DNA of 64,000 nt from Mycobacterium sp. SM1 (GTDB taxonomy: Bacteria; Actinomycetota; Actinomycetes; Mycobacteriales; Mycobacteriaceae), in contig NZ_JAFLNH010000001.1 of the NCBI RefSeq assembly GCF_018361265.1, positions 1,240,001-1,304,000 of the forward strand, written 5' to 3'. Positions 21,039 to 41,022 of this stretch are shown piece after piece. The notes under the pieces are model-generated. The model had not been told where the DNA came from and did no database searches. It saw only the letters and a program-made list of their open reading frames with translations. The first letter of the stretch is position 1. Each line of letters opens with the position of its first letter. Both the position numbers and the translations under genes were made by a program.

Positions 21039-21765
21039 TGGCTTCTCCTTACGGTAAACAGAATTGATGCGCGACTGAATCGCCGTTTGCCCAAGTGCGG
21101 TTAAGCAACGGCTGCACCGACGCCGCCGCTGTCTCCCCTCGAAAACACCTCTAGCCGTTGCCCGCATGATCTGCGGCCTGGCCGGACGTATGTCGCGTAA
21201 TCTGGCTGGGTAACGGGATCTGTTGGCAGGTAAAGTATTCCGTTCCCCTGGGGGTGCTCGGCATTGCCCGGCACGTCCACGGCTGCGACGCTGAGCTCTT
21301 CGTGTTCTTCGCGGTGAGCTTCTTTGATCCGCGCACGACGCGGTACCTGGCCAGGGGAAGGCCGCATTGCCGAACGGCAGATACACGTGCGCGCCAAGAC
21401 ATGAAAGGCTGTGCCTGCGCGGCGTCGGGGCGGTAATTGGTCGATTACGCGGTGAAAGGCCGTTCATCTCAGCTACCTCTCGCCTGCGCGCAGGGTGGCG
21501 ACCTGCACTGTCACTGACTGCCACAGCTGCGGGTAACGGCGTCTTGTTCGCCATCCGGCAACCCCGCCGTTACCCCCAGGGGGTATATTATCGGTTGCCG
21601 GTGACACGTGCCCCTCGTTTGGGGATATTGGCGTGCAACCGCGACCTGCCGGTCGCAGACGGATGGAATAACCGCTCTGTGGCTGGCATCCTGAACATCC
21701 TCGCAACACGGCGGTTGAGCACCTGGCCGGTAGCGAGATGAGTGCGTAGCGATGAGGAGGGTGCG
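21039..21765. other. Intergenic region PE / copper ATPase
   Basis: A 727-base divergent gap. It contains the pseudo-palindromic copper operator at 21570-21586 about 180 bases before the ATPase gene. Several overlapping open frames in both strands lack ribosome-binding sites and homology. No RNA gene is evident, though the long leader between operator and start (about 170 bases) is large enough for one. Confidence 0.6.
21570..21589 (+). promoter_or_regulatory. RicR/CsoR-type operator upstream of the cupredoxin-ATPase gene
   Basis: TTACCC-CCAGG-GGGTAT is a 6-5-6 inverted repeat like the TACCC/GGGTA core bound by mycobacterial RicR/CsoR repressors. A TATATT -10-like hexamer overlaps its right arm (21584-21589). 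The same geometry recurs before the regulator and metallothionein genes in this island. Confidence 0.75.
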
Positions 21766-24243: not shown

Positions 24244-24435
24244 CCCGCGGCCGCGCCGTCGATGATAGCGCCGTGGGTGAAAACGCCTGGCGCCCAAAGT
24301 GAGTCAATCGCTTATCGGGAGTAAGGCATTGGCGTTTTTGGTGATTGCGCCGGGCCGGCACCAGCCCGGCACCTCTCGGCACTCATCGTTGGTGGGCGCC
24401 ACGCCGGCGGCCTCCGGTGACGCACATCGCTTCAC

Positions 24436-24463
24436 CTACCCCCGTAGGGTAGCTAGCTATAGT
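24436..24463 (+). promoter_or_regulatory. RicR/CsoR-type operator and leaderless promoter
   Basis: CTACCC-CCGTA-GGGTAG (24436-24452) is a perfect 6-5-6 palindrome. A TATAGT -10 hexamer at 24458-24463 places the expected transcription start on the A of the ATG at 24470. The operator sits between the -35 and -10 regions, the right place for repression. Confidence 0.75.
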
Positions 24464-24469
24464 GGTTAC

Positions 24470-24667
24470 ATGCCGCCCACCGTGACTCGAGGTTCCGCCG
24501 TCTCGGGGCACCCATGCCCGGAGATGCCGGGGCGGCGACCGACGATCTGCCACCCGGGCGCCATCGCGACGGCCGCGGCCGGGATCGGCGACGCCGACAA
24601 CCACAAACGCGTCGGTGGGCGACGGGAATGTCGCCCCTCAGCAGGAAGGCAGGGTCCAGCCCGATGA
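24470..24667 (+). CDS. Leaderless 65-residue upstream ORF coupled to the repressor gene
   Basis: The ORF begins seven bases after a TATAGT -10 element, so its mRNA probably has no leader, which is common in mycobacteria. It ends in an ATGA overlap with the repressor start (TGA 24665-24667, ATG 24664). The predicted peptide starts MPPTVTRGSAVSGHPCPEMP and has three cysteines (HPCPEM, TICHPG, RECRPS). I know no homologue. It may be a translated leader that couples or tunes repressor synthesis; it could also be chance read-through of a GC-rich leader. Confidence 0.5.
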   Translation: MPPTVTRGSAVSGHPCPEMPGRRPTICHPGAIATAAAGIGDADNHKRVGGRRECRPSAGRQGPAR

Positions 24668-24978
24668 CGAAGACGCTGGAGCACCAGGGGCACGCCACCT
24701 ACGGATATGTCGCGCACAAGGACAGCTACGCTAAGCGGCTGAGCAAAATCGAGGGTCAGGTCCGCGGCATCGCGAAGATGATCGAAGAAGACAAGTACTG
24801 CATCGACGTTCTCACCCAGATCAGCGCCGCCAGCAGCGCGTTACGGTCGGTGGCGTTAAACCTGCTCGACGAGCACCTTGATCACTGCGTGAGCCACGCG
24901 CTCGCCGAAGGCGGCAAGGAGGCCGAGGTGAAGCTCGCCGAGGCCTCGGCGGCTATCGCACGTCTGGTGCGCTCCTGA
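24664..24978 (+). CDS. CsoR/RicR-family copper-sensing repressor
   Basis: A 104-residue all-helical DUF156 repressor. It has the family opening KRLSKIEGQVRGIAKMIEED and the Cu(I) ligand set Cys-His-Cys: Cys in DKYCIDVL, then His and Cys in LLDEHLDHCV. Copper binding releases these repressors from GC-rich TACCC/GGGTA palindromes. The extra N-terminal segment HQGHATYGYVAHKDSY resembles RicR more than CsoR. An AAGGCAGGG-like site precedes ATG 24664. It probably regulates itself, the cupredoxin-ATPase and the metallothionein-like gene through the three matching operators. Confidence 0.92.
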   Translation: MTKTLEHQGHATYGYVAHKDSYAKRLSKIEGQVRGIAKMIEEDKYCIDVLTQISAASSALRSVALNLLDEHLDHCVSHALAEGGKEAEVKLAEASAAIARLVRS

Positions 24979-25343: not shown

Positions 25344-25580
25344 GGCTTTTTCGCGGCGTGGCCCACGGCAGCCCAAACGGTTGCGCCGATACCGCCCGCG
25401 GGGGCCGTCAGAAGAAGGGACCGCCGCCCGATACTCCCCGCCCGATATGCGCCGTCCGCCAAAGACATGCGGTTACACAGCGGGCTGCACTCGTGTGCAC
25501 GAAAATATTCGACAGGGGTTGTCAACTGTTGCGGCGTGGGTGGTCGGTAGTTGTCGGTGGTGTGCTGTAGGAACAGGGGT

Positions 25581-26171
25581 ATGAATCTTGCGGTGTGGGC
25601 TGAGCGCAACGGTGTTGCGCGGGTGGCCGCGTATCGCTGGTTTAGCGCCGGGCTGCTGCCGGTGCCCGCCCGGCGAGTGGGTCGGCTGAATCTGGTGGGT
25701 GAGCCGACCGGCGAGGCTGGCCGAAGATCACGCACGACCGTGTACGCGCGCGGCTCCTGGGCTGATCAGAAGGCTGATTGGGATCGGCAGGTGGCGCGGG
25801 TGACCGCGCGGGCCACGGCAAAACAGATCCCGGTCGACACGGTGGTGACCGGGGTTGGTTTCGCGCTCAACGGGCACCGCCGGAAGTTTCTCGCCGTACT
25901 GGGTGACCCGACGGTGAGTCGGATCGTGGTCGAGCGCCGGGATCGGTTCTGCCGGTTCGGCTCGGAGTACGTGCAGGCGGCGCTGGGCGCCCAGGGCCGT
26001 GAGCTGGTGGTGGTCGATTCCGCTGAAGTCGATGACGACCCGGTGGGCGATATGAGCGAGATCCTCACCAGTATGTGCGCTCGGTTGTATGGCAAACGCG
26101 CTGCGCAGAACAGGGCCAAGCGTGCGCTTGCTGCTGCGGCAGCGGCGTCCGACGAGGTGGAGGTGGCCTGA
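25581..26171 (+). CDS. tnpA: IS607-type serine recombinase (TnpA)
   Basis: A 196-residue small serine recombinase with the IS607 layout: an N-terminal MerR-like helix-turn-helix (MNLAVWAERNGVARVAAYRW) before the catalytic domain. The catalytic motif reads VYARGSWADQKADWDRQ; the Arg and Ser are retained but neighbouring positions (normally VSSxDQ) are changed, which may weaken activity. The stretch ALNGHRRKFLAVLGDP and the C-terminal MSEILTSMCARLYGKRAA are typical. It cuts and joins DNA through a phosphoserine intermediate. It is followed two bases after the stop by tnpB. Confidence 0.92.
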   Translation: MNLAVWAERNGVARVAAYRWFSAGLLPVPARRVGRLNLVGEPTGEAGRRSRTTVYARGSWADQKADWDRQVARVTARATAKQIPVDTVVTGVGFALNGHRRKFLAVLGDPTVSRIVVERRDRFCRFGSEYVQAALGAQGRELVVVDSAEVDDDPVGDMSEILTSMCARLYGKRAAQNRAKRALAAAAAASDEVEVA

Positions 26172-26172
26172 G

Positions 26173-27552
26173 ATGCCGCGTTTCGAGGTGCCCGACGGCT
26201 GGTGTGTGCAGGCGTTGTGTTTCACCCTGGACCCGAACGGGGGCCAGGCCCGCGCGCTGGCGCGCCATTTCGGGGCCCGCCGCAAGGCCTACAACTGGGC
26301 CGTCGCCACGCTGAAAGCCGATATCCGGGCGTGGCACGCCGCCGGTGTCAAGACCGCGAAGCCCTCGCTGCCGGTGCTGCGGAAACGCTGGAATCAGGTC
26401 AAAGACGAGGTGTGCGTCAACGCCGAGACGGGCCAGCCGTGGTGGAGTGAGTGCTCCAAAGAGGCCTACGCGGGCGGGATCGCCGCCGCGGTGGACGCCT
26501 ACTGGAACTGGCAGAGCTCCCGATCGGGCAAACGCGACGGCAAGCCGATGGGCTTCCCCCGGTTGAAGAAGAAAAGACGCGACGCCGACCGCGTGACATT
26601 CACCACCGGGGTGATGCGCGTCGAACCCGACCGCCGGCATGTCGCCTTGCCGGTGATCGGCACCGTCCGCACCCATGAGAGCACCCGCCGCATCGAGCGA
26701 CTCATCGCCAAGGGCCGCGCGCGGGTGCTGGCGATCAGCGTGCGGCGCGACGGCGCCCGACTCGACGCGAGCGTGCGGGTGCTGGTGCAGCGGCCGATTC
26801 AGCCCGGCGTGGCGCTGCCCGAGTCGCGGGTCGGTGTCGACGTCGGGGTGCGCCGGCTGGCGAGCGTGGCCACCGCCGGCGGCGGCGTGATCGAACAGGT
26901 GGCTAACCCGCGCCCGCTTGAGGCGGCGCTGCGCGAATTACGGCGGGTGTCGCGGGCCCGTTCACGCTGTGTGAAAGGCTCCCGCCGGTATCGGGAGCGC
27001 ACCACGCAGATGTCTCGGCTGTATCGCCGGGTCAACGATGCCCGCACCCATCACCTGCACGCTCTGACAACACGATTGGCCAAAACCCACGGCCGGGTCG
27101 TGCTGGAGGGATTAGACGCCGCCGGGATGCTGCGGCAAAAGGGCCTGCCGGGGGCTCGCGCCCGGCGGCGGGGACTCTCCGATGCCGCCCTGGGCACCCC
27201 GCGGCGGCACCTGGCCTACAAAACGGGCTGGTACGGGTCACGGCTGGTGGTCGCTGACCGCTGGTTCCCGTCGTCGAAAAAATGCCATGCCTGCGGGCAT
27301 GTCCAGGACATCGGATGGGACGAAAAGTGGCAATGTGCCACGTGTTTGGCGGTCCATCAGCGCGATGACAACGCCGCGATCAACCTCGCGCGCTACGAGG
27401 AAACCATTAGCGTCGTCGGCCCAGTTGGGGCCGCCGTCAAGCGTGGAGCCGACCGTAAGACCCGGCCTGGCCGGGCAGGTGGCCGTGAAGCGCGGAAGGG
27501 ACGCGGCCGCAAGGCCGCCGAACAACCCCGAGACGGGGTGCAAGTCGCGTGA
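26173..27552 (+). CDS. tnpB: TnpB, RNA-guided nuclease of IS607
   Basis: A 459-residue TnpB with an intact RuvC active site by eye: Asp in GVDVGVRRLA, Glu in VVLEGLD and Asp in RDDNAAINLA. The Cys4 zinc ribbon (CHACG ... CATC) lies between the second and third motifs. TnpB proteins are guided by an omega-RNA transcribed from the element's 3-prime end and cut the empty donor site, helping retention. The omega-RNA would overlap the end of this gene and the right end near 27552-27590. Start ATG 26173 is two bases after the tnpA stop. The protein ends in an Arg/Gly/Lys-rich tail. Confidence 0.93.
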   Translation: MPRFEVPDGWCVQALCFTLDPNGGQARALARHFGARRKAYNWAVATLKADIRAWHAAGVKTAKPSLPVLRKRWNQVKDEVCVNAETGQPWWSECSKEAYAGGIAAAVDAYWNWQSSRSGKRDGKPMGFPRLKKKRRDADRVTFTTGVMRVEPDRRHVALPVIGTVRTHESTRRIERLIAKGRARVLAISVRRDGARLDASVRVLVQRPIQPGVALPESRVGVDVGVRRLASVATAGGGVIEQVANPRPLEAALRELRRVSRARSRCVKGSRRYRERTTQMSRLYRRVNDARTHHLHALTTRLAKTHGRVVLEGLDAAGMLRQKGLPGARARRRGLSDAALGTPRRHLAYKTGWYGSRLVVADRWFPSSKKCHACGHVQDIGWDEKWQCATCLAVHQRDDNAAINLARYEETISVVGPVGAAVKRGADRKTRPGRAGGREARKGRGRKAAEQPRDGVQVA

Positions 27553-27973: not shown

Positions 27974-28726
27974 ATGCTCAGAGCAGCCAGGTCGCTAGTC
28001 GTCCCCGCAGGGATCATCGCGATGGCCGTGGCGCTATCAACCGGGCCAAGCTCGGCGGCCGTTGCGACCCCCAACGCGGTTCCCGGCGTTGCCTCGATTC
28101 AGCCAGCGGGCGGCGAGGTGGTTGGTGTCGCGCATCCGGTCATCGTCACCTTCAGTCGTAAAGTCACCGATCGCACCGCCGCCGAACGGACCATCAAGAT
28201 CATTTCTCCCAGCGTGCCCGGGCGCTTCACCTGGATGGCCGATAATGCCGTGCAATGGGCTCCGGTGGGATACTGGCCCGCCCATACGAAGGTGACCGTG
28301 CGGGTGCACGGCTTCTCCACCGGCTTCGAAACCGGCGACGTGGTGAAGGCCGTTGCCAGCATCTCTGCGCACACGTTCACCGTCAGCATCAACGACGAGG
28401 TCGTCCGCACAATGCCGGCATCGATGGGCAAGCCCAGTCGTCCTACGCCGGTCGGTCATTTCAGCGCGTTGTCCAAAGAGCGGACCGTCACGTTCGATTC
28501 GCGAACCATCGGCATCCCGCTCAGTTCTCCTGAGGGCTACCTGATCCAGGGTCAGTACGCCGTCCGGGTCACCTGGAGCGGCGTGTACGTGCACTCGGCC
28601 CCGTGGTCGGTGGACTCGCAGGGCTACGCGAACGTCAGTCACGGCTGCATCAATCTCAGCCCGGACAACGCCGCCTGGTATTTCGACGCCGTGCATGTCG
28701 GTGATCCGATCATCGTGGAGAGCTAG
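27974..28726 (+). CDS. L,D-transpeptidase with Ig-like domain
   Basis: A protein of about 250 residues: signal sequence (RSLVVPAGIIAMAVALSTG, cleaved near SSAA), an Ig-like domain (about residues 40-125) and a YkuD catalytic domain with SHGCINLSPDNAAWYF, the Cys being the nucleophile. Such enzymes form 3-3 crosslinks in mycobacterial peptidoglycan and are inhibited by carbapenems. ATG 27974 is preferred because GAAGGGG lies 9-10 bases upstream; an in-frame GTG at 27965 overlaps that site. It is shorter than LdtMt2 and lacks an evident second Ig-like domain. The next gene starts ten bases downstream. Confidence 0.9.
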   Translation: MLRAARSLVVPAGIIAMAVALSTGPSSAAVATPNAVPGVASIQPAGGEVVGVAHPVIVTFSRKVTDRTAAERTIKIISPSVPGRFTWMADNAVQWAPVGYWPAHTKVTVRVHGFSTGFETGDVVKAVASISAHTFTVSINDEVVRTMPASMGKPSRPTPVGHFSALSKERTVTFDSRTIGIPLSSPEGYLIQGQYAVRVTWSGVYVHSAPWSVDSQGYANVSHGCINLSPDNAAWYFDAVHVGDPIIVES

Positions 28727-28736
28727 GAGCCACGAG

Positions 28737-29700
28737 TTGGGCGATGGCCGCGAACCACTTGAGTCGGGAAAAGCACGCGCGGTACGTTTCGACCGCTACG
28801 GGGGGCGTGATGTGTTGTACGTGACCGACATTGACATGCCGTCGCCTGACCCCGGCGAAGTGCTCGTCGAGGTTCGTGCCGCCGGGATCAACCCGGGCGA
28901 GGCTGCTATCCGCGTCGGCGTGCTGCACGAGATGTTCCCGATTACGTTTCCGTCCGGCGAGGGCATTGACCTCGCCGGCGTGGTGACCGCGGTCGGGCCT
29001 GAAGTGACCGAGTTCTCGGTCGGCGACGAGGTCATGGGGTTCAGCTTGCGCCGATCCAGCCACGCCACCCACACCGTCGTTCCAGTCGGCCAGCTGATCC
29101 GCAAGTCTCCCCAGTTGAGTTGGGAAGTCGCGGGCTCGCTCTACGTCGTCGGCGTGACCGCATACGCCGCCGTGGCGGGCGGTGTCGCCGCAACCGGGCG
29201 AGACGGTAGCAGTCTCGGCGGCCGCGGGCGGGGTCGGCAGCCTTGTGGTCCAATTGCTGGTCCGCCACAAGGCGCGGGTGCTCGGTATCGCATCGGAGCG
29301 CAACTTCGATTGGTTGCGAGCCCACGGTGTCACCCCGGTGCCCTACGGTGACGGGCTGGCCACGCGACTGAGGGAGGCCGCGCCCAACGGAATCGACGCT
29401 TTCATCGACTTGTTCGGCCCCCAGTACGTGCAGCTCGCCGTGGACCTCGGCGTGGCGCCCGAGCGGATCAACACCATCATCGCGTTTCAGAAAGCTGCAG
29501 AAGTCGGCGCCAAGACCGAAGGCAGGGCCGAAGCGTCAACCCCGCAGGTGCTGGGTGAAATGGCCGAGCTGGTCGCCAGCGGTGCCATTGATTTCGACGT
29601 CGCCGCAACCTACTCCCTCGACCGGGTCGCGGACGCTTTCGAACAACTCGAAAAGCGGCACACCCACGGCACAATCGTTCTGCTACCGCAAGCGTGGTAG
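28737..29700 (+). pseudogene. Frameshifted quinone-oxidoreductase/MDR-family gene
   Basis: Two overlapping frames together encode one medium-chain dehydrogenase/reductase. The N-terminal half (GRDVLYVTDIDMPSPDPGEV to about VGVTAYAAV) and the C-terminal half (PGETVAVSAAAGGVGSLVVQ onward, the NADPH-binding Rossmann motif) switch frame near 29165-29190. A single-base change there would restore about 320 residues. TTG 28737 with an AGGAG site seven bases upstream is the likely start, coupled to the L,D-transpeptidase. The stop codon TAG (29698-29700) is partly supplied by the transposon: the last G is the transposon's first base. It may be a true pseudogene or a sequence error. Confidence 0.75.
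29695..29699. repeat. Left target-site duplication TGGTA
   Basis: TGGTA immediately precedes the left inverted repeat and is repeated exactly at 41018-41022 after the right one. A 5-bp duplication is the Tn3-family signature. Confidence 0.93.
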
Positions 29701-29737
29701 GGGTCGGCTTAGTAACGGAACGAATTTGGTTGTTTTG
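29700..29737 (+). repeat. Left terminal inverted repeat (IRL) of the transposon
   Basis: A 38-bp Tn3-type end beginning GGGGTC and containing GGAACGAA, as in many Tn3-family ends. It differs from the right end only at positions 8, 27 and 38. Confidence 0.93.
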
Positions 29738-29751
29738 TGATCTCGCTATGG

Positions 29752-32700
29752 CTACGCGGGGATGCGTAGCGGCCGGTGGCCTTCGCGCCGGCGCTGGGCG
29801 TCGATGTCGAACGAGTACGTGCCATAGAAGGTGATGTGATCATGCTGGGCAGGGCTCAAGTGTGCCGCAGTCTCGTCGCTGACCTCCATGCCGTTTGACC
29901 GCAGGTTGTCGATCGTGTCGGCGAGGTAGGTGGTGGTCCACAGCACGCAGGCGTTGGTGACCAAGGTGAGGCACAGTGCCTGATCGATTTGGTCATCGAG
30001 ATGACGTCGGCGGACGTGGCCTTGATGCGCGAAGAATAGGTCGCGCCGCAGCGCATGCAGACTCTCGCCCTTGTTGAGCTGACGGCGCACGCGGCGCCGG
30101 AGTTCTTCGTCGGCGATGTAATATCGGCAGGCGTAGAGGGTGCGGACGAGTCGCCCGTACTCGTGCAGCGCCTTCGCGAGCGTGCTCTGCCGACTGCTGG
30201 CGTGAAGCTTGGCAATGAGCAGGCTGGCCGTAGTGTGCCCGAACTTCATCGAGGCAACCAGGCGCAGCAGATCATCCCAGTGGTCGGCGATCAGCTGCGT
30301 CTGGATCGGCTGGCCGAGCAACCGCCCGGCGTGCGGGTATCGAGCGCGCCAAGCCGAGGCGGTTCCGGGGCGGTAGAGCTAGAGGCGGCCGATGTCGCGG
30401 ATGCGCGGAGAGAACTGCAACCCGGCCAGGTGGAAGATCGCGAATATCGCGAGGGTTTGTCCGGCGGTGTCGACGGTGTGCTCACTGAGCGGCAAATCTG
30501 TTGGGTTGCCGAAGATTTCGTCCAGAACTGCGACCGCCTCGCGCCAGCTGGTCGGTATGACCTTGGTGCCGTGGGTCGAATGTTGATCGGAGACATGGGT
30601 ATACGTGGTGGTGCCTTCGTCAACGAAATACCGTGACAGCGCGCGGGTAGTGAGGCTGTGTCCCCGTTGTGGGAACCGCTGGCCGTCCGACGACGAGAGC
30701 ATCCCGCCGCCCCACAGCGCGGCGAGGGGGTGCGCGTGGTGTGCGTTGACCAGACGCGTGTGCGCCGCCCGCAGCGTGTCTTGGCTTAGGTACCACTGCG
30801 ACGTCCAGGCCAGGGCGTCCTCGGAGATGCCCGAAGCGTCGGCTATCCCGGCGTAGCCGAGGTTGCAGGCGTAGGCATCAGCGACGCGTACGGGTTGCGG
30901 GTGAGGTCGGGGTTGCGTGGTTGCGCGCCGCCGGCGTGGGTGAACTCTTCGCTGAACCCGGTCAGTTGGTCAACCTCGATCAGCAGTGCCGGCAATTGCA
31001 CCCTGGGCAGCCGAGCTGATGTGGCGGCGGCGAGCGTATCCGCCTCGGCCGGAAGCTGTTCGGCAGGCAGCGGCGACACGATCGGCTCACCGTCATCACC
31101 GAGACGTGCGAGTCCCTCAGCGCCTGGGTCCGTCAAGACTGTCTCCAATGCCGCGACTGCCGCGTGCAGCTGGGCCTGGAGTCGATCGAGTTGCCGGGAC
31201 GCGGCGGGCTCGGTGCCGGTGACGGTGCAGAAGTCGTCGCGGGTGCCCGGCCCACCGATCCGGCGGTAGCAGCAGGGTGGACGGGTTGGTGTAGCGGCGT
31301 GAGCCGGGCACCCATAGGTCGCCGGAGCGCAGCCCGGCCTGCACCCCGTAGAGGACGCTCAGTTCCCAGTAGGGGCGGTAGGCGGCGCCGCGGCCTTGAC
31401 CACGCGCGGTGTCGAGGTAGCCACGCCAGCGCGTTGGCACGAACACCGTCGCCGCGGCGGTGGTCGCCTTGTCCGGGACAGCGGTGCGGGCGGCGGTGTT
31501 GAGCCCGCGCAGCACCTCGACGGCAGTGAGCAGCGCCGTGACCGACGCGCTGGCGGTGTTCCTGGTCAGTGAAAGCGCAGCAATCACTAGCGGGGTGAAA
31601 GTGCGCGTGTACTTGTAGCGGGCGGCGAGCAGGTCAAAGTGACCATGGTCGCGCTGCCCGCGATCTTCAGGTGGGCGGCGGGCGGCGATCAGGCGTTGCA
31701 TGCCGACCCGCTGGCGGACGACCCGCCCGGCCTGCTCGTCGGGAACGGTCGGGTCGGCGAGCACGTCGAGGATCTCATCGAGCAGCCTGCCGCGGTCCAC
31801 CTCGGCTTTGGCGCGGTCGACGAGCCGCTGTGAAAGTTCATGCCGGGCTCGGGAATCCGCGCCGCCAAGCGCTTGGTCGAGCAGTTGCACCAGCTCGTCG
31901 AGCACCTCGATGTAGGTTTCGGCCAGTGTGGCCAACAGGACCGGGTGACGCCGGTCGACCGCGGCGCGCTGCAACGCCTGATTGGTCGAGCGCCGGCCGA
32001 TCTCGGCAAGCATGCGCTGGCGCCCGACCGGGAGCTGGGACAAGTCGAGGCGATCGGCGCCGTGGCGTCGCAGGAATTCCAGCTTGTCCAGCTCGGCCTT
32101 GAGCAGCTCGGGTGTGGCAACGGTGGCCCCGCGGCGCAGCCACGCCAGGCGGGTCAAGCCGAGGTCGGGGTCGACATCGAGCAGGCTGTCGAGCTGCATG
32201 GGCCGCGGTGGTTGTAGCAGCGGCCCAAGCCGGTGGTAGGTCTCGGCGCGAGCCGCATCGCGTGCCGCGGCCACCCTCCGGGTCAGGCTGTCGGCCGGTG
32301 GGCGGACGATCCGTTCGGCGCGCAACCAGTCACAGGCCAGCTGGGGCAGGACGCCGGGGGCATCGTGTTCGAGCGCCCGGGCCAGCAGGAACTCGTCGAG
32401 CAGCTTGCGTTCGCCGGTGGCGCATAACCGCCAACCCAGCCGTGCCAGCACTCGTGTGCGGTGTTCCCGACGGGTTCGTCCCTGCCAGCCGCCGTACTCC
32501 GCCAGCAATGCCGACGAGGTATCCGGTCCAATACCTAAAGCCTGCGCGAGACGATGCAGTGCGAGGGGCGGGCAGCCGGCCAGGTCGTCGGGAATCCAGC
32601 CCAGCCACGGCAGCGTCGACAGTTGAACGGCGACGCCGAGACGGTTGTGCTGGCGTTGAAGCCCGCCAGCCACGACAGATTGACGCAAAACAAGATCGTC

Positions 32701-32802
32701 GGCGGAGAGGGTGAAGTAGGTGACCGCGTCCTCGACCGCGATCTCGTCCGGCCAACTGCTCAGCCGGGCGAGCTCGGGATCAGACAGATAGCGGACCGGC
32801 AT
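29752..32802 (-). pseudogene. tnpA: Tn3-family transposase, degraded
   Basis: Pieces in three frames line up as one transposase of about 1,015 residues. The N-terminal piece (start 32802, MPVRYLSDPELARLSSWP) runs to about 31254, where a one-base insertion shifts frame after LLLPPDRWAG. A second shift lies near 30870-30890. An in-frame amber codon (complement of 30379-30381) interrupts IRDIGRL / LYRPG. DDE residues are still recognisable: Asp in YTHVSDQHSTHG, Asp in HTVDTAGQ and Glu in LNKGESLHALRRDLF. With three lesions it should be inactive; movement would need a related transposase in trans, unless the lesions are sequence errors. Confidence 0.9.
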
Positions 32803-32917
32803 TTGGCCTCCGAGGGGCCCGCGGTTCGGGCTATCACCGCAGCGACGCTAACCCCGAGCGAAGCGGCCGGGAAAGACCTTGGTCGTCACCCGTAAGGGGA
32901 TCCCCTTGTGGGCTTAC

Positions 32918-32955
32918 GAAAACAATCAGATTCGTTCGGTTGCTAAGCTTCGATC
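32918..32955 (-). repeat. Internal relic of a third transposon end
   Basis: Between tnpA and the cargo, oriented like the right end. The inner 30 positions (9-38) match the right end at 27 of 30, but the outer eight bases (GGGGTC part) are almost fully changed. It encloses, with the left end, a 3.25-kb unit holding only tnpA. Confidence 0.85.
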
Positions 32956-33002
32956 TGAGCATGGCCGGGCGCCGGGCTGCCGGCGGGTCATGCCTCCCGT
33001 TC

Positions 33003-33635
33003 CTACAGCATCACACCGAACATGATGGCCATACCGGAGGCCATGAACGCGTGGCATAGCGTCCCCCAGTCCCCGAGGCGCGTGGCGTGCGGCACGGGGT
33101 TCGCTTTCTGCTGCGCGAGATACCGGTAGAGCCAATACACCGCGGCGCTTGCGAATCCGACAGCCGCGATCCAGTTGAGGGCGGTAATCCACCCGGGTTC
33201 GGTTGTCGCGGCTACGGACATGTCCATGCCGGACATCTTCATATCCGGCGAGCTAGACATGGTGTGGCCGGGTGAGTTACCGCGCGGGCCCAGTGGGCCG
33301 CCGGTCATCACCGCGTACATCCAAGCTACCGCCGCCATCATTATTGCGTGGTAGCCGTTGGTCAGTCGGCCATCGTCGCCGGAGAACACGTGGGCAGCCA
33401 CAAGCACGAACCAGACAGCCGCCGCTAGGAAGAAGACCATCGGCCCGAGTGTCGGGAGTCCCATTCCAACGGGCCAGGCCATCACGACCATTGCCGCACA
33501 CATCACTATGTGCAGCAGGCGTTCGATTGTGCATATCCAGCGTTCACGTTGCGCGACAAGGCCATACAGGTGTCCCGCGAAGCTGGCGCCGAACAGGACG
33601 GTAACCGTCCACCGCAGCGCGAGGTCGCCGATCAA
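33003..33635 (-). CDS. DUF5134-like membrane protein, Rv0970-type
   Basis: A 210-residue protein with about five to six hydrophobic helices and a Met/His-rich loop (GHTMSSSPDMKMSGMDMS) that could contact copper. It is the last gene of the minus-strand copper operon; the same place in the M. tuberculosis cso operon is held by Rv0970. A final helix near the C-terminus (LCHAFMASGMAIMFGVML) is also Met-rich. Function is unknown; a periplasmic copper-handling role with the ATPase is inferred. Confidence 0.82.
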   Translation of the reverse strand: MIGDLALRWTVTVLFGASFAGHLYGLVAQRERWICTIERLLHIVMCAAMVVMAWPVGMGLPTLGPMVFFLAAAVWFVLVAAHVFSGDDGRLTNGYHAIMMAAVAWMYAVMTGGPLGPRGNSPGHTMSSSPDMKMSGMDMSVAATTEPGWITALNWIAAVGFASAAVYWLYRYLAQQKANPVPHATRLGDWGTLCHAFMASGMAIMFGVML

Positions 33636-33701
33636 GATCCGCTACCTCGCATACTCGGGAATCTTCCGTGCTGCGCTGACATCGTTGATTGTCTCCTTTG
33701 G

Positions 33702-33974
33702 CTAGATTCGCGATTTAAGGTCGGAGGGTTCGATCGCCACATCGGTGCTCTCGCCGATCACCTTTGCGCCGGCAACGTGGTAGCCCTGGTCCTCGATGGC
33801 CTCGACCAGCCGCCCCGCGGGTGCTCCGTCGTCGCGATGGATGATAGTGGCCGTCTTCGCTGGCACGTCGACCTCCACCGCGGCAACGCCCGCAATGGCG
33901 GCGACTATGCCTTCGATCGCGGGCTCGCAACTCTGGGACGAAATCCCCGGAAGCGTCAAGACCGTGGTCGTCAT
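33702..33974 (-). CDS. Heavy-metal-associated (HMA) domain protein, atypical
   Basis: A 90-residue ferredoxin-like HMA fold. The metal-binding loop reads LPGISSQSCEPAIEG instead of GMTCxxC, so the first Cys is replaced by Ser and only one thiol remains. The rest is typical: VAAVEVDVPAKTATI and LVEAIEDQGYHV. HMA proteins hand Cu(I) to P1B ATPases; with one Cys the affinity or partner may differ, for example by dimer bridging. It lies between the ATPase and the DUF5134 gene in one operon. Confidence 0.82.
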   Translation of the reverse strand: MTTTVLTLPGISSQSCEPAIEGIVAAIAGVAAVEVDVPAKTATIIHRDDGAPAGRLVEAIEDQGYHVAGAKVIGESTDVAIEPSDLKSRI

Positions 33975-34111
33975 GAGCTACTCCTTCATCTGTGCCGAAG
34001 ACCCCGCAAACGTGCGAGTGCCGAATCGCACATTCACGTAGTGGCCTTACCTTTGCCTAGTCGGCGACGGCACTGGATGCGGGGTCAAGGTGCTGGTTCT
34101 GCTGTCGTTGC

Positions 34112-36526
34112 TCATTTCGCCTCGGGCAATGCGCGCCGCGCGTGCTCCTGTCGGGTGTCCGCCCCAATGCGGCGGAGCCGCAACGAGTTGGCGACCACGC
34201 TGACCGAGGAGAACCCCATCGCCGCACCCGCGACGATGGGGTTCAGCACGCCGAGCGCGGCAAGCGGGATCGCGGCGGTGTTGTAGCCGAAGGCCCAGCC
34301 CAAGTTCTGATGGATCGTGCGCAGGGTCTGCCGCGACAGCTCAATCGCCTGCACGACACCGTCGAGGCGGCCGGACATCAGCGTGATGTCGGAGGCCTCG
34401 ATGGCCACGTCGGTGCCGGTTCCTATTGCGATGCCCAGATCGGCTTGCACCAGGGCGGGCGCGTCGTTGACGCCGTCGCCGACCATCGCCACCACCCGGC
34501 CCTCGTCTTGGAGTCGGCGAACCTCGGTGACCTTGTCTTCGGGTAACACCTCGGCCAGCACCTGACCGATGCCGACCTGGTTGGCGATCGCGGCCGCCGT
34601 GGGGGCGTTGTCGCCGGTGATCAGTGCGACCTGCAGCCCCATGGCGCGCAGCTTGCGGACCGTGTCGACGGCGTCGTCCTTGATGGTGTCGGCCACCGCC
34701 AGCACACCCACAACCTGGCCGCTGCGGCCGACGAACACCGCGGTGCGACCCTGCTCTTCGAGCTCGGCGGCCGCCGTCGCGAGGGGCTCAGGGAGAACCA
34801 AGTCGTGGTCGTCGACGAGCTTGCGCCGCCCGACCAGCACGGGCACGCCCTCGACCTCACCCTGCACTCCACCACCGGCGAGCTTGGCGAACTCGGTAGC
34901 GGCCGGAATCTCCAACCCGCGCGCGCGGGCGGCGGCGACGATCGCCGCGCCGATCGGGTGTTCTGAGCCCGCCTCGACCGCGGCCGCGATCCGCAGCACC
35001 AGATCAGGCCGCCGCCGCTTGTCGGCAATCACGTCGGTGAGCCGCATCCGGGCGCGGGTGAGGGTGCCGGTCTTGTCGAACACCACGGTGTCGATCTTCT
35101 TCGAGGCTTCCAGCACCTCTCCGCCCTTGACCAGGATCCCCAGGTCGGCGCCGCGGCCGGTGCCGACCATGATCGCCGTGGGGGTGGCAAGGCCGAGCGC
35201 GCACGGGCACGCGATGATCAGCACCGCCACCGCCGCGGTCATGCCAGCGACCGGGTCGGCGGCCAACAGCGTCCACCCGGCAAACGTCGCCACGGCAACA
35301 CCGAGCACCGCAGGCACGAACACCGCCGAGACCCGGTCCGCCATTCGCTGTATCGGGGCCTTGCCGCCCTGTGCCTGCTCAACCAGGCGCACGATCTGCG
35401 CTAGCGCGGTGTCGGCCCCGACGGCGGTAGCGCGCACGGTCAGCAGCCCGTCGGTGTTGACCGTTGCTCCGGCGACATGGTCACCCACCGTTTTCTCGAC
35501 CGGGACGGACTCGCCGGTCAGCATCGACTCATCGACGGCGGCTCGCCCGTCGATGACCTCGCCGTCGACCGGGATCTTCTCCCCTGGCCGCACCAGCACC
35601 AGGTCTCCGACTTGCACCTGATCAACCGGCACGAGGAGCTCCTGGTCGTCGACCAGCAGGCAGGCTTCCTTGGCGCCCATCTCCAGCAGCTTGCTGATCG
35701 CCTCCGACGCCTTACCCGTGGCTCTGGCCTCGAAATAGCGGCCCAGCACCACGAACGCAATAATCAATGCTGCGGTATCGAAGAACAGCGGCCCGCCAAC
35801 GAACAGCTGATAGACGGAGTAGGCAAACGCGGTCAGGGTGCCCAGCGCGATCAGCGTGTCCATGCCCGCGGACCCTGCACGCGCTTGCTGCACGGCCCCC
35901 TTCAGGAACGGCCACCCGGATATGAACTGCACGGGCACCGTCGCGGCGAACGCCAACCACCCCGCCCACGGGTAAGCGCCGAACAACATCGGCGCCGCCA
36001 TCACCGCCACTCCCAACGGGAATGCCAACAACACCCGCCGCAACCATTTGCGCTGCTCGCGCTTCCTCTGCTCAGCCGGCGACAACTCGCTCCCGGTGAC
36101 CGGTCCGGACCCGCAGCTGCCGCAACTCTCGCTGTCCGCCAAACCGTCCAGCGGGCGACGGCACATCCCCACCAGCGCCAGTCCGATCCCGCTGGCAATC
36201 CTGCGCACCACACCGATCCTGAGAATTGCAGCCGAGTGCGGGGCACGCGTGGGCACCAACTCTGCAGGAATGTGCTCGGCTTCGCCGATCGCGGACAGCA
36301 CAGCAGCGGTGTCGCACTGCTGGGGCGAATACCAGATCACCACCGATGCCGTTCGCGGATAGGCGTGCACGGCTTGCACGCCGGTCACTTGCGAGACCGT
36401 CTCTTCGATCGCTACGGCCCGAACCGCGTCGACATCAAACCCGCTGACGTGCACCCGCATGCGCCCTGACGCGTCGGAAACAACCTTCAGCGCGGCGTCG
36501 GCACCAGGAAGGACATCAGTGGTCAT
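34112..36526 (-). CDS. P1B-1 copper-exporting ATPase, CtpV-like
   Basis: An 804-residue ATPase. A divergent N-terminal HMA-like domain (about residues 15-90, no CxxC) leads to a Cys cluster ESCGSCGSG. The pump core is complete: TGES in [12 protein letters not shown] in [23 protein letters not shown] and GDGVNDAP, with [12 protein letters not shown] and [14 protein letters not shown] in the last helices, the Cu(I) P1B-1 signature. The gene overlaps the upstream DUF1490 gene by 11 bases. Gene order matches Rv0968-ctpV-Rv0970, but here the block is transposon-borne with MerR-type promoters and without a csoR gene. Confidence 0.93.
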
Positions 36527-36830
36527 GATCGCCAGAGTCCACCACGGTCATCGGTGAAACATCCTGTTCGGCACGCTCTTTAGCCTCAGCCACCACGTCG
36601 GCGACCGTCAGCCGTGCGTGCTCAGCGCTCGCCCCGGCCTTGCGCTCGGCCTCACGGGCAACGCGCATGCCCCAGGCGGTAACGATGACTGTTGCCTTCC
36701 GCAGCGGGGCCTTCGCCACCACCTTGCGCACCGCCTCATAAGCCGCAACCCCAACCGCGCCGGTCACCACCGCGGGTACCGCCTTTGCCATTAATGCGTG
36801 CAACACCATCTTCTCGAACGCCCCCTTCAC
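36516..36830 (-). CDS. DUF1490-family protein, Rv0968-type
   Basis: A 104-residue protein starting [20 protein letters not shown], with a Gly/Ala-rich hydrophobic segment (about residues 17-40) and a charged C-terminus with a terminal DSGDHDH. It resembles Rv0968, which lies between csoR and ctpV in M. tuberculosis. Function is unknown. It is the first gene of the copper operon, about 70 bases downstream of a MerR-type promoter. Confidence 0.85.
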
Positions 36831-36905
36831 AATCGTTGGCCCATCGTTGGCTCACGCTCTGGGAGGCGCGCGTGTCGCGCGACGCGTTAGCCGACGGGCA
36901 ACCCC

Positions 36906-36936
36906 AAGGTATTGGTTGGCCCTGGGGCAAGGTCAA
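36906..36936 (-). promoter_or_regulatory. MerR-type promoter driving the copper operon
   Basis: On the minus strand: TTGACC, then a 19-base spacer beginning TTGCCCCAGGGCC, then TACCTT. The over-long 19-bp spacer with a dyad in it is diagnostic of MerR/CueR-activated promoters. It points toward the DUF1490-ATPase-HMA operon. Confidence 0.7.
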
Positions 36937-37128
36937 GGGTTAGGCGACACCGGTGCGGTGGATGGATTCATCGGGTTCACCGGGTCCGAGCTGGACCTGA
37001 TTGTTCGAAGCACTGGCGCTTCTGCCTAAACGCCTTGGCATGCAATTACTTACGCAATTTAATGGAGGCTGGACCAACAGCCGGTGCCCCGCGACGCGGT
37101 GGGCGGCAAAAAATTACGGCACTGCGTC

Positions 37129-37159
37129 TTGACCTTGCCCCCGAGGCAATCCCTAACGT
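37129..37159 (+). promoter_or_regulatory. MerR-type promoter driving the small ORF/merR side
   Basis: TTGACC, 19-base spacer beginning TTGCCCCCGAGGCAA, then TAACGT. The -35 and start of the spacer are identical to the promoter facing the other way, so one regulator could control both. It lies about 50 bases before the small ORF at 37211. Confidence 0.7.
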
Positions 37160-37210
37160 TGGAGTCACCGGCGGTGATGCCTCCACCGCATTCAGGCAAA
37201 GGAGGCGAAC

Positions 37211-37357
37211 ATGAGCCGAGCCGCAACCTCATTGGCTCAGGTTTCCCAGATGGTGGCTATGCGGCGCACCCAAGGCCAACAACCATCAACACCAGGATTC
37301 ACCTTGACGGGCGTTCTCACCACAGAAGAGTTGGGTCGGGAGCTGGAGAAGCAATGA
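37211..37357 (+). CDS. Small ORF downstream of the MerR-type promoter
   Basis: A 48-residue ORF (MSRAATSLAQVSQMVAMRRT ... EELGRELEKQ) with an AAAGGAGG ribosome-binding site seven bases before ATG 37211 and a MerR-type promoter upstream. It ends in ATGA, suggesting a second, coupled ORF that the group II intron now disrupts. I do not recognise it. Good signals make translation likely. Confidence 0.55.
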   Translation: MSRAATSLAQVSQMVAMRRTQGQQPSTPGFTLTGVLTTEELGRELEKQ

Positions 37358-37463
37358 GCACTGGCGGTAGGACCCAGGGCCTTGGTGCCGCCGGTTTCCC
37401 GGTCGGTTGTCCGTCCCCTGGTGCCCCTGGTCAGGTCGGTGCCGCTCCAGCTCCCGCCACCTC

Positions 37464-37496
37464 GAACCGTGCATGCGGTTCTCCCGCACACGGCTC
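37464..37496 (-). ncRNA. Group II intron domain V
   Basis: A 33-nt hairpin: GAGCCGTGTGCGGG, a GAA-type loop region, then CCGCATGCACGGTTC. This is the catalytic core of group II ribozymes. The stop codon of the intron protein overlaps its first bases. Confidence 0.9.
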
Positions 37497-38879
37497 ACCG
37501 ACGCCGTTCACCGCCGGCATTCGGTTTCTCCCGCCAGGGCTTGTTAGCCCTGGGTGCGATGACGGTTCCGTTCAGGCTGTACAACCCGCAGTAATCGGTG
37601 GACTGGTAGGCAAGCACGGACAGGCCAAAGCCGCGCCCGCGCTTGTGCTGCCTACCGATAAACAGCGCCAACCGGTCTTGGGCGTGCTGCTGGATCTTGT
37701 GGAAGCGGATCGCGGAGTGGCCGTAGCGAAAATAGTTCGCCCAGCCACGCAGGAACCTGTTCAGGTCCTCCACCACCACCTCGACCGGCAGCAGCAGCCG
37801 AGACCGGATCGTCAACTGCCTGATCCGATCGCGTGCACGGTGCATCGCCCGATCACTGGGCCAGCGGGCCAAGAACGCCACACCACGTCTGCCGTGCACA
37901 CCCCGCGAGCGCACCATCTGATGATGAAAGCCGAGAAAGTCGAAACCTTCTCCGCCCACCACCAATTCGACGATGCGGGTCTTGGCCTCCTTGGGCACCA
38001 AGCCCAACTCGGCCAGCAGCGCCCGCAGCCGCGCGAGCGCGGCGTGGGCTTGCTGTTCGGATTCGCGCATCACCAGCAGATCGTCGGCGAAGCGCACCAG
38101 CACCCCGAAAGCGCGGGTGTCCCAGGACCGGTCGAGCCGGTGCAGGTACACGTTGCACAGCAAGGGGCTGATCACAGCACCTTGCGGGGTTCCGGTGTCT
38201 GGATGACGGACGACGCCGGATTCCATCACTCCCGCACGCAGCATCGCGCGCAGCAGCTTAAGCGCCGACTGGTCGCACACCCGTTCCTTGACCGCTGCCA
38301 TCACCCGGTCATGCGGTATCACCGAAAAACAATCGGCGATATCGGTCTCCACCACCCACCGCCTGCCCCGAAAGTTCTCGTCGACGAGCACCTGCAGGGC
38401 ATCGTGCTGACCCCGCTTCGGGCGAAACCCGAAACTGCACGGGGCAAAACCCGCTTCGAAGATCGGCTCGAGCACGATCTTGGTGGCGGCCTGCACGATG
38501 CGGTCACGCACAGCAGGAATCGACAGCGGCCGCTGCTCGGTCGTTCCCGGCTTGGGGATATAGACCCGCCGCGCCGGAAGCGGCCGATACGACCCATCCC
38601 GCAGTTCGGAGAACACCGGTCGATGCCGTACTCCTTTTCGATCCAGTCCAAGGTGGTCCGGTCAATGCCCGGTGCGCCGTTGTTGGTGCGCACCGCGACC
38701 CAGCCGCGCCACAGGACATCTCTGCGCAAGATTTTGTCCCACAACGCATGAAACCGTCGCCCGGGATCGGCCTTGGCCGTCCGGTACAGCGTGTGTTGCA
38801 GGGCACGCACCTTGTCCAACGGAACCTTGTCAGCGACAACAGTTCCGCTGTCGGCGGGACTAGCCGAAACGGCACTCAC
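37495..38879 (-). pseudogene. ltrA: Group II intron reverse transcriptase/maturase, frameshifted
   Basis: The N-terminal part (MSAVSASPADSGTVVADKVP; start 38879) and the rest (SELRDGSYRPLPARRVYIPK onward) are in different frames; one G seems missing near 38617-38620 at IDR / VFSEL. Together they give about 461 residues. The RT core has the metal motif FADD in VRFADDLLVM, and domain X/maturase follows with FLRGWANYFRYGHS. No HNH endonuclease domain is visible, which fits short intron proteins. The active sites are intact, so only the single shift would inactivate it. Confidence 0.88.
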
Positions 38880-39460
38880 CGGGCACCTCCACAGTCACCC
38901 ACACGCATCGACGAAGCAGTGGCCCTTCCCTCACCGGCGGTTGTGTTGTCCGCTCGGCTCAACCGGTACTACGACCACCTCCGACGCCCCCCCGGCTGGC
39001 TTCCACTTCCCGGCTCGTCGCCGGTTATAGGTCGCCGCGCTCCAACCGCTCTACGCAGTCGGTTGGGCCGGGGAGGGCCTCTCCAGTTCCCGTCACCACT
39101 ATCCGAACGTTCCGAGCCCCTTACGCCGGGGAGTCCTTCACGGCTGCACTTCCAGGATCTTCACCGCTTCCATGGCCTTCGCCCTTCTCCTCCGGGCTCG
39201 GCACTCCCTGATCGCTTAACGACGCGGCAGGCTTCACTTCACGTTACGGACCGTTCGGTTGCACACCCCGATAACCGGGGCGTTCGACGCTGGGCTTCGA
39301 CCCCGCCCGTTTCCAGACGACACCGCCAGCCTGCTACCGGGCCTCCTGACAGCTACCCGGACCGGACTTTCACCGGCAAGCGACGACGAGCTTACGAATC
39401 AGCCGCCAACCATTTACATGATCAACCACCTTTCACTACTGGACGCACAGGAGGAGCCCG

Positions 39461-40142
39461 ATGAAATCTCACGCCAAGAAGGCAATCGCGCTGTCCGGTG
39501 GTGCAGCTATCCTCGTCTTAGGAGTCGGGTTCGGCGGCGGCGATCTGTCGCCGAGTCGCGGGACGACAACGCGTTCGTCCAGCATTGCACTGACATTCCG
39601 ATCTCCGTTGCCCCCACAGGAACACTCCGCGCATCTCGGCGCCGCCGTCCATGAACGAAACCTTGTGACGCATACCGTCGGTGATGCCGCCAAAGTTATC
39701 GGCTTCTCGGCCAAGGCCATTCGGATCTGGGAAGCCAAAGGGCTGCTGCCACCAGCCGAGCGCACCGATGCGGGCTACCGGCTGTTCAGCGACGATGACG
39801 TCGGCGATCCTGCGATTCATCGTGCGGGCCCGGACCCTCGGCTTAACCCTGTCGGAGATCAAAGGCATCCTCGACCTGCATCGCCACGGCATGGCGCCTT
39901 GTGAGCAGGTTACCGCGCTGCTCGACAAGCACATTCGCGACATCGACCGCGCCATTGCAGACCTCCACGCCTTACGTACCATCCTCGCCGCGGCGCTACA
40001 GACCGCCCGCATCGATCAACGACGCGGACAAGCTGCCACGGTCTCGAGGAGCTTTTCCCGGTCACCCGCTCGACGATCTACTGGGCGGTCGCGCGCGGGC
40101 GGGCGAACAACCGGGACGTCAATACATAGCACAGCACGATGA
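39461..40142 (+). pseudogene. MerR-family regulator, frameshifted
   Basis: The HTH part reads HTVGDAAKVIGFSAKAIRIW and EAKGLLPPAERTDAGYRLF (GTG start at 39665 likely). After FSDDDV a single extra G (near 39803) shifts the frame; the rest (ILRFIVRARTLGLTLSEIKG, CEQVTALLDKHIRDIDRAIA) is in the next frame. The dimer helix with its first Cys (APCEQV) is CueR/ZntR-like, suggesting a Cu, Zn or similar sensor. In front, in the same frame from ATG 39461 behind AGGAGG, is MKSHAKKAIALSGGAAILVL, a membrane-anchor-like leader that may be a separate small protein. It is the likely activator of the two 19-bp-spacer promoters. Confidence 0.8.
40043..40129 (+). pseudogene. Possible resolvase C-terminal helix-turn-helix relic
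   Basis: A third frame after merR reads LEELFPVTRSTIYWAVARGR followed by ANNRDVNT and a stop. This looks like the C-terminal HTH of a serine resolvase (pattern xLFxVSRSTIYR). Only about 28 residues remain. It may be the trace of the transposon's lost tnpR, or chance similarity. Confidence 0.4.
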
Positions 40143-40957
40143 CCGATCTCGTAGGGCGCACCACGCGCGGCCTCTTCCGCGACTTGATGACCAACAGCAC
40201 GGTCGGCGCGATCAGCACCGCGCTTCAAGACGAAGGGTTCGCGGCCGATCCCGACTGCCGCTACGAAGACAGCAGCGTGCGCCGGCAGACAACGCAGTCG
40301 TACCTGGATGCGGTCGACTGGACCGACCCACGACACGTCGGCCGATTTCTCCGGGTCGCCGAACGGTTGCTCAATGGCTGGGAACCTCAGGGCCTGAGCC
40401 AGTTTCACCAATCGCTACGCCGCGACGGCTACCAGGTCGATGAGCAGACCGGCCAGATCACGCCACTCGCGTCACAGCTGTCGATCGAATCGAATGCGAG
40501 ACTCGCCGACCCGTCAGCCATTCGCGAGGGCTTCGAGCGCATCAGGCGCGCAATCGGCGACGATCCCGCGCTCGCGGTCGGCAGCGCCAAGGAACTGATC
40601 GAAAGCACCGCCAAGGTTGTCCTCAGCGAACGTGGCCAGCCGTTCGACGATAAGTCTGGCCTACCCAAACTGGCGCGCGCAGCACAGCTTTCGCTCGGGC
40701 TGGACCCCTCGAAAGGTTCCGGACCGGATGGCAGCGAAGGTGTTAGGCGCATCCTCGGTGGGGTCACCACCATCGCCAACGGACTCGCCGAGCTGCGCAA
40801 CCGCGGGATGGGCACCGGACACGGTCCGGCAACCGCACGCGTTGGTCTGGGGACCCGGCACGCACACCTCGCGGTCAATGCGGCGCTCACTTGGTGCCAG
40901 CTGATGCTCGACACCCTCGCCGACCCCGAAGCGCCCTTTCGCAAAGCTCATTCGTAA
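40139..40957 (+). CDS. Abi-C (abortive infection C-terminal) domain protein
   Basis: A 272-residue soluble protein. The C-terminal 150 residues fit the abortive-infection C-terminal domain: DDPALAVGSAKELIESTAKV, then AELRNRGMGTGHGPA, the most conserved patch, ending in HLAVNAALTWCQLMLDTL. The N-terminal 120 residues are unassigned. Proteins with this domain occur in phage-defence settings; action on phage is inferred, not shown. It lies 22 bases inside the right inverted repeat and is intact, unlike its neighbours. Confidence 0.78.
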   Translation: MTDLVGRTTRGLFRDLMTNSTVGAISTALQDEGFAADPDCRYEDSSVRRQTTQSYLDAVDWTDPRHVGRFLRVAERLLNGWEPQGLSQFHQSLRRDGYQVDEQTGQITPLASQLSIESNARLADPSAIREGFERIRRAIGDDPALAVGSAKELIESTAKVVLSERGQPFDDKSGLPKLARAAQLSLGLDPSKGSGPDGSEGVRRILGGVTTIANGLAELRNRGMGTGHGPATARVGLGTRHAHLAVNAALTWCQLMLDTLADPEAPFRKAHS

Positions 40958-40979
40958 GCCGCCGCCAAACGAAGACCAC

Positions 40980-41017
40980 GAAAACAACCAGATTCGTTCC
41001 GTTACTAAGGCGACCCC
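40980..41017 (-). repeat. Right terminal inverted repeat (IRR) of the transposon
   Basis: Read on the minus strand it begins GGGGTCGCCTTAGTAACGG and matches the left end at 35 of 38 positions. Confidence 0.93.
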
Positions 41018-41022
41018 TGGTA
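41018..41022. repeat. Right target-site duplication TGGTA
   Basis: Exact copy of 29695-29699. Joined to the left flank it restores TGG-TAA, the original last codon and stop of the oxidoreductase gene. Confidence 0.93.

What the first reader, a model, noticed from the sequence alone, without database searches (positions are those of the whole stretch)
29700..41017. Complete Tn3-family transposon carrying a copper operon and an Abi-domain gene
The sequence shows 38-bp ends matching 35/38, an exact TGGTA duplication outside both, and 11.3 kb between them. The cargo is a cso-like copper operon (DUF1490, CtpV-like ATPase, HMA, DUF5134), MerR-type control, an Abi-C-domain protein and a group II intron. 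Copper export plus a possible phage-defence gene on one mycobacterial transposon is an unusual package. Family assignments are established knowledge; mobility is inferred.
Basis: partly seen in the sequence, partly recalled or inferred. Interest (0 to 1): 0.88.

Follow-up and report, generated by a model that had tools for sequence, protein, structure and literature searches.

The report
Copper transposon with resolvase-linked Abi gene
A mycobacterial chromosome holds an 11.3-kb unit of the Tn3 jumping-gene family that carries copper-pump-type genes and a gene predicted to make an RNA-cutting protein, which several relatives keep overlapping a resolvase gene; its transposase is broken here, so it likely no longer jumps by itself.

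Summary
Observation confirmed. The 38-bp ends (29700, 41017) match 35/38, are flanked by identical TGGTA, and one relative (G060) has the uninterrupted site. "Complete" holds only for the ends: the transposase is in pieces, merR and the intron maturase frames are broken, and of the resolvase only a ~30-codon tail remains. Relatives show the missing backbone: M. gordonae and M. nebraskense have intact 1010-aa TnpA; M. nebraskense has an intact serine resolvase whose stop overlaps the Abi start (ATGA), then the right end. The same 4-bp resolvase/Abi overlap occurs in four other actinobacterial genomes (Abi 63-66% identical; resolvase as low as 32%). Thirteen of 18 outside Abi loci lack it, nearly all at or below 56% identity. 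So the Abi gene is most likely backbone; the copper operon (cso-like, without CsoR) is cargo that displaced most of tnpR. The Abi protein models as a HEPN domain with a conserved R-x5-H motif. A third, decayed end lies upstream of tnpA. Toxin-antitoxin pairs beside Tn3 resolvases are published; a lone Abi_C gene overlapping the resolvase did not turn up in my searches. RNase activity, phage defence and mobility are untested.

The parts
29695..29699 (.). left target duplication TGGTA
29700..29737 (+). left terminal inverted repeat
29752..32802 (-). tnpA, Tn3 transposase, broken (ORF pieces 31117-32802, 30843-31148, 30379-30702, 29752-30321)
32888..32913 (.). palindrome around GGGGATCCCC between tnpA and the inner end
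32916..32955 (-). third, inner transposon end, outermost bases changed
   Evidence: 30/40 to the right end; relatives
33003..33635 (-). DUF5134 membrane protein
33702..33974 (-). HMA metallochaperone-like protein
34112..36526 (-). CtpV-like heavy-metal P-type ATPase, 804 aa, intact
36516..36830 (-). DUF1490 protein
36906..36936 (-). predicted MerR-type promoter of the copper operon (TTGACC, 19 bp, TACCTT)
   Evidence: sequence; motif recalled
37129..37159 (+). second predicted MerR-type promoter, divergent (TTGACC, 19 bp, TAACGT)
   Evidence: sequence; motif recalled
37329..39448 (-). group II intron (limits approximate), maturase frame broken
39645..40044 (+). merR, frame-shifted; a signal-peptide-like ORF start (39461) is fused in front
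40044..40142 (+). tail (~30 codons) of the resolvase gene tnpR; its stop overlaps the abi start
40139..40957 (+). abi: Abi_C / HEPN-like protein, 272 aa, intact
40980..41017 (-). right terminal inverted repeat
41018..41022 (.). right target duplication TGGTA

Best explanation
This is a Tn3-family transposon that inserted as one 11.3-kb block, and its Abi_C gene most likely belongs to the transposon's own backbone, as the overlapping downstream partner of the resolvase gene, while the copper operon is likely exchangeable cargo. Shown here: ends, 5-bp duplication, an uninterrupted site in a relative, related ends at other sites, intact transposase and intact resolvase-Abi pairs in relatives, and broken transposase, merR and maturase frames in this copy. 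Inferred: (1) the ancestral backbone was transposase, resolvase and Abi between two ends, with Abi translation coupled to resolvase translation by the 4-bp stop/start overlap; (2) the Abi protein would act as a HEPN-type RNase that arrests or kills the cell, during phage infection or when the element arrives or is lost, as proposed for Tn3-borne toxin-antitoxin pairs; (3) the tnpA side once had its own inner end, and decay of that end would make the transposase use the far end, so that what lies between, here the copper operon, travels with it; (4) acquisition of the copper block removed most of tnpR, and tnpA and merR decayed, leaving a copper locus likely fixed in place with an intact abi. 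Copper would switch the operon on through a MerR-type promoter, probably by MerR supplied in trans from a second copper locus of this genome.
For: Ends and TGGTA. Uninterrupted site in G060, 75% identity over 1,941 columns. M. gordonae: left and right end both flanked by TGGTA at another site, intact TnpA. M. nebraskense: intact TnpA, intact resolvase overlapping abi, right end, matching CATAG flanks on two contigs. Ca. M. methanotrophicum: both ends, resolvase tail and Abi (91% aa) with a different middle. Resolvase directly before abi in 5 of 18 outside loci; exact 4-bp overlap in the 4 intact ones, families confirmed; Tn3 transposase matches nearby in 4 of the 5. dN/dS 0.14-0.28 in three abi pairs. 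HEPN. Inner end. Second copper locus with merR in one frame.
Confidence: 0.68

Rival explanations
1. The Abi gene is ordinary phage-defence cargo; its overlap with resolvase is tight packing at the end of the element, without a functional link.
For: Abi_C genes are listed as cargo of Tn7-like transposons (48 cases, PMC8649781, passages). Solo relatives lie on plasmids beside PIN, NACHT or HEPN genes. Resolvases without abi occur.
Against: The same 4-bp overlap with resolvases as divergent as 32% identity in four further genomes; abi is still the terminal gene in elements with different middles.
Confidence: 0.2
2. Two separate elements, a tnpA unit with its own two ends and a resolvase-Abi unit, lie side by side by chance and the 11.3 kb never moved as one.
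For: A third end upstream of tnpA; tnpA-side ends without Abi elsewhere.
Against: Identical TGGTA exactly outside the two outer ends (about 1 in 1,000 by chance) and the uninterrupted site in G060; the inner end has lost its outermost bases.
Confidence: 0.08
3. The frame breaks are sequencing errors and the element is intact and active.
For: Several frames here, and the neighbouring alcohol-dehydrogenase gene, are broken.
Against: The indels are not in long homopolymers and include 16-bp and 13-bp events; one break is an in-frame TAG; abi and the ATPase are intact, most of the window tiles with long ORFs, and the genome is rated 99.92% complete in 7 contigs.
Confidence: 0.1

Closest known systems
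Toxin-antitoxin pairs in the Tn3 transposition module (Lima-Mendez et al. 2020, PMC7157771; outline, passages, sections 14 and 16 seen)
   Same: Toxin-type gene kept next to the resolvase while other passengers change; one of their cases is a HEPN toxin.
   Different: There: 39 of 190 Tn3 transposons, two-gene type II pairs, usually upstream of tnpR; HEPN only as HEPN-MNT. Here: one Abi_C gene without a recognised antitoxin, downstream of tnpR and overlapping it.
AbiJ and other HEPN abortive-infection proteins (PMC3710099, passages seen)
   Same: C-terminal domain, R-x4-6-H type motif, helical fold.
   Different: PADLOC AbiJ match is weak (40 bits); the N-terminal half has no Pfam family; the resolvase coupling.
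cso copper operon of M. tuberculosis (csoR, Rv0968, ctpV, Rv0970; recalled)
   Same: DUF1490, ATPase, DUF5134 in the same order.
   Different: No csoR in the block; an HMA gene inserted; divergent broken merR and an intron in front.
Related transposon on an M. intracellulare subsp. chimaera plasmid (NZ_CP015275.1)
   Same: Ends match the window's at 31/38 and 29/38; transposase 77% DNA identity.
   Different: Other cargo (ArsR-type regulator, MFS, MATE, amino-acid enzymes); no Abi among its listed genes.
Abi_C cargo of Tn7-like transposons (PMC8649781, passages seen)
   Same: Abi_C on a transposon.
   Different: Different transposon family; listed there as cargo.

Membership tests
Tn3-family transposon | about 38-bp terminal inverted repeats and 5-bp target duplication | tested here: met
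   35/38 and TGGTA
Tn3-family transposon | Tn3 DDE transposase | tested here: met
   PF01526 and PF13700 on the pieces; gene broken here, intact in relatives
Tn3-family transposon | own resolvase | tested here: not met
   Only a tail in the window; intact in M. nebraskense. Some Tn3 members lack one (recalled), so membership stands
Tn3-family transposon | transposition through a cointegrate | not testable with these tools
   needs an experiment
cso operon | DUF1490, CtpV-type ATPase, DUF5134 in this order | tested here: met
cso operon | CsoR repressor in the operon | tested here: not met
   No PF02583 among the ORFs scanned in the element; one lies outside it at 24514-24978
HEPN / AbiJ-type protein | Abi_C or AbiJ sequence profile | tested here: met
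   Abi_C 75.8 bits; AbiJ 40 bits
HEPN / AbiJ-type protein | R-x4-6-H motif | tested here: met
   R222-x5-H228 in 45 and 47 of 48 sequences
HEPN / AbiJ-type protein | HEPN fold | tested here: inconclusive
HEPN / AbiJ-type protein | RNase activity or phage defence | not testable with these tools
   needs an experiment
Tn3-borne type II toxin-antitoxin pair | toxin and antitoxin genes together beside tnpR/res | tested here: not met
   One Abi gene; no second small gene between tnpR and abi or between abi and the end

The most novel reading that the evidence does not exclude
Actinobacterial Tn3 transposons have a conserved two-gene resolvase-HEPN module: the Abi protein is made only together with resolvase and acts as a one-gene arrest or addiction switch of the transposon itself (resolvase as its timer, perhaps its antidote), with phage resistance as a by-product; in this genome the effector has outlived the resolvase and transposase that once controlled it.
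Probability: 0.38. Interest if true: 0.78.

Novelty: new variant of a known kind. Interest (0 to 1): 0.6.

Why it matters
It would move an abortive-infection gene from passenger to part of the transposon machine. If a resolvase and a HEPN RNase are translated together in actinobacterial Tn3 elements, the open question why Tn3 transposons keep toxin genes beside their resolvase can be tested on a single-gene case. It also suggests a route, decay of an inner end, by which a tnpA unit gains cargo such as copper-export genes.

Tried and rejected
Palindrome as resolution site: its centre is the break point in 3 of 9 loci looked at (L084, L107, L066), it is whole in 5, and the M. gordonae contig ends there. 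Suggestive only; not part of the main claim.

Phage origin of abi: 4 of 50,697 phage records match, all under 60% identity and none over 80% cover; 5 viral contigs at 31-38%. Not pursued.

Empty plasmid site in M. gordonae: the joined flanks matched 25 plasmid records, none over 80% of the query; the 12 listed match the EccA side only. Not shown. In NZ_CP015268.1 the two flanking regions lie about 1.6 kb apart.

Solved structures by sequence: 2 rows, best E 0.1. Viral structure library: no E under 0.001. Arthrobacter plasmid: no end pair found.

Literature searches (PMC open library only): 54 papers, 20 listed; 77, 15 listed; 489, 10 listed. No listed title or abstract start describes an Abi_C gene coupled to a Tn3 resolvase; I opened three papers only (PMC7157771, PMC3710099, PMC8649781).
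Full report
Observation. Terminal repeats 29700-29737 and 40980-41017 match 35/38; TGGTA stands at 29695-29699 and 41018-41022. The 26-base core (up to 3 mismatches) is found only at these two places in the window; 0 of 100 shuffles had two matches. The contents are as described but not intact. TnpA aligns to an intact relative in three stretches (residues 1-516, 513-639, 637-1010), the last with one in-frame TAG; against M. gordonae it has five indels, the largest 16 bp, with no homopolymer longer than 4 at any of them. MerR is frame-shifted, and an ORF start that belongs to another protein in the genome's second copper locus is fused in front of it. The maturase has a 13-bp deletion relative to a 99.6% identical copy in the same genome. 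The ATPase (804 aa) and the Abi_C gene (272 aa) are intact.

Insertion as a unit. The joined flanks matched 94 of 248 genus genomes; one, G060, aligns in one piece over 3-493 of 500 bases, G147 over 3-263. Over 1,941 alignment columns G060 is 75% identical, with the alcohol-dehydrogenase and acyltransferase genes side by side and a few dozen intergenic bases unaligned at the junction. In many other listed genomes the two matches lie roughly 0.75 to 3.5 kb apart on one contig, so this space varies. TGGTA falls on the stop codon of the dehydrogenase gene, so the insertion regenerates a stop. An Emb arabinosyltransferase gene lies in the same window, so this looks like core chromosome.

Relatives. 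The end core occurs in 10 of 248 genus genomes, this one included, and in 10 stretches of the species collection: M. gordonae (4 contigs), M. nebraskense, M. persicum, Ca. M. methanotrophicum and three MAG contigs. G119 is M. gordonae DSM 44160 by its contig lengths. It has a single 1010-aa TnpA ORF, 92% identical in DNA, left ends at two sites, and a left and a right end both flanked by TGGTA on contigs with EccA, EccE and T4SS genes. The right-hand contig resembles mycobacterial T4SS plasmids (27 records, best 78.8% over 68%). M. nebraskense has an intact TnpA beside a multicopper oxidase gene and a DUF326 gene, and on another contig an intact serine resolvase, the Abi gene (87% aa) and the right end; the outer flanks (CATAG) match across the two contigs. 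Ca. M. methanotrophicum has a 6.6-kb relative with both ends, a transposase with an internal deletion, a resolvase tail and Abi (91% aa), an integrase-core gene in the middle, no copper-operon match and no matching 5-bp flanks. Of six elements with both ends seen, three (window, M. gordonae, M. nebraskense, the last two across contigs) have matching 5-bp flanks. Among 248 genus genomes, Abi at 80% or more was found in this one and, N-terminally truncated, in M. persicum; five others are at 37-39%. So the element is rare.

The Abi gene and the resolvase. In M. nebraskense the resolvase ORF ends at 10333 and abi starts at 10330 of L085 (ATGA). The window keeps about the last 30 codons of this resolvase, itself frame-shifted, including the overlap; DNA similarity to M. 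nebraskense and Ca. M. methanotrophicum begins at 40043, where similarity of the merR region to the second copper locus ends (40044). Eighteen Abi loci from other taxa were tested with two resolvase queries. Five have a resolvase directly in front: G372, G829, G844, G891 and Nonomuraea gerenzanensis, the last a damaged pair. Thirteen do not. In the four intact cases the overlap is again exactly 4 bp, GTGA or ATGA, and Pfam confirms resolvase and Abi_C, although the G372 resolvase is only 32% identical to that of M. nebraskense. The five are 59-68% identical to the window's Abi per matched stretch; the uncoupled ones are at or below 56% over their main stretch, except an Arthrobacter piece, 61% over residues 103-269, which lies near a Tn3 transposase and a resolvase without overlapping it. 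Tn3 transposase matches lie in the fetched stretch of 4 of the 5 coupled loci. A tree of 16 Abi proteins (7 coupled, 9 solo; 5 split or partial loci of the 18 left out) needs two changes of state, reached by 2 of 500 shuffles; a single origin appears in 22% of bootstrap trees, so it is neither shown nor excluded. Against the reading: the four resolvase relatives found in 396 genus genomes have no abi in the fetched stretch, and in two of them the end follows tnpR directly. Abi implies resolvase in this clade; resolvase does not imply Abi.

Copper block. DUF1490, ATPase, HMA and DUF5134 read leftwards from 36830; a predicted MerR-type promoter (TTGACC, 19 bp, TACCTT) lies at 36936-36906 and a divergent one at 37129-37159 (motif recalled). 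The group II intron sits between operon and merR, antisense to merR. A second copy is at G000:C1:1887804-1893365 (92% DNA) with merR in one frame. Identity between the copies is patchy, 68-82% over 35868-36867 and 96-100% over 36868-39617, as recombination between them would give. For another transposase copy in this genome, which scored 30 of 274 and 3 of 6 candidates, listed none.

Third end. 32916-32955 matches the right end at 30/40; the best other non-end stretch of the window scores 23/40. Its outermost bases are changed. In Ca. M. methanotrophicum the equivalent is 32/38; in a Mycolicibacterium MAG (L065) a full end stands just before a short tnpA-like start. I infer a tnpA unit that once had two ends of its own, whose inner end was lost by mutation (window) or by breakage at the adjoining palindrome (L084, L107), so that the far end beyond abi is used.

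Verdict. A real, singly inserted, decayed Tn3-family transposon; new variant of a known kind. The closest published idea is that toxin-antitoxin pairs are part of the Tn3 transposition module (PMC7157771, outline, passages, sections 14 and 16).

Noticed in passing
21742-24978: Another copper-type locus 5 to 8 kb left of the transposon: a P-type ATPase with a cupredoxin-like N-terminus and a CsoR-type repressor. The genome has several further ATPase matches.
   Followed up: partly
25551-27552: Serine recombinase and OrfB/TnpB pair, IS607-like; the TnpB also scores with PADLOC Cas12f/Cas12u4 models.
   Followed up: no
32888-32913; L084, L107, L066, L017: Break points of related elements fall at the centre of the GGGGATCCCC palindrome: 3 of 9 loci, plus one contig end.
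   Followed up: partly
34118-39638 and L087: Patchwork identity (68-100%) between the two copper blocks of this genome, highest around the shared group II intron.
   Followed up: partly
37329-39448: Group II intron with 98-99% identical copies elsewhere in the genome, one of them split in two.
   Followed up: partly
L084 839-2380 and 4586-4906: The M. nebraskense element has a multicopper oxidase gene and a DUF326 (copper-storage-like, recalled) gene next to tnpA: copper cargo again, but different genes.
   Followed up: partly
L086 972-4618: M. nebraskense 3.6-kb element with two ends, a resolvase N-terminal domain gene, a universal stress protein gene and a decayed abi start, no tnpA match.
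   Followed up: partly
28695-29700: The alcohol-dehydrogenase gene at the insertion site is itself split between two frames.
   Followed up: no
G000:C1:1721800-1721825: A lone partial transposon end elsewhere in the genome, without a tnpA or Abi match in the 17 kb around it.
   Followed up: partly
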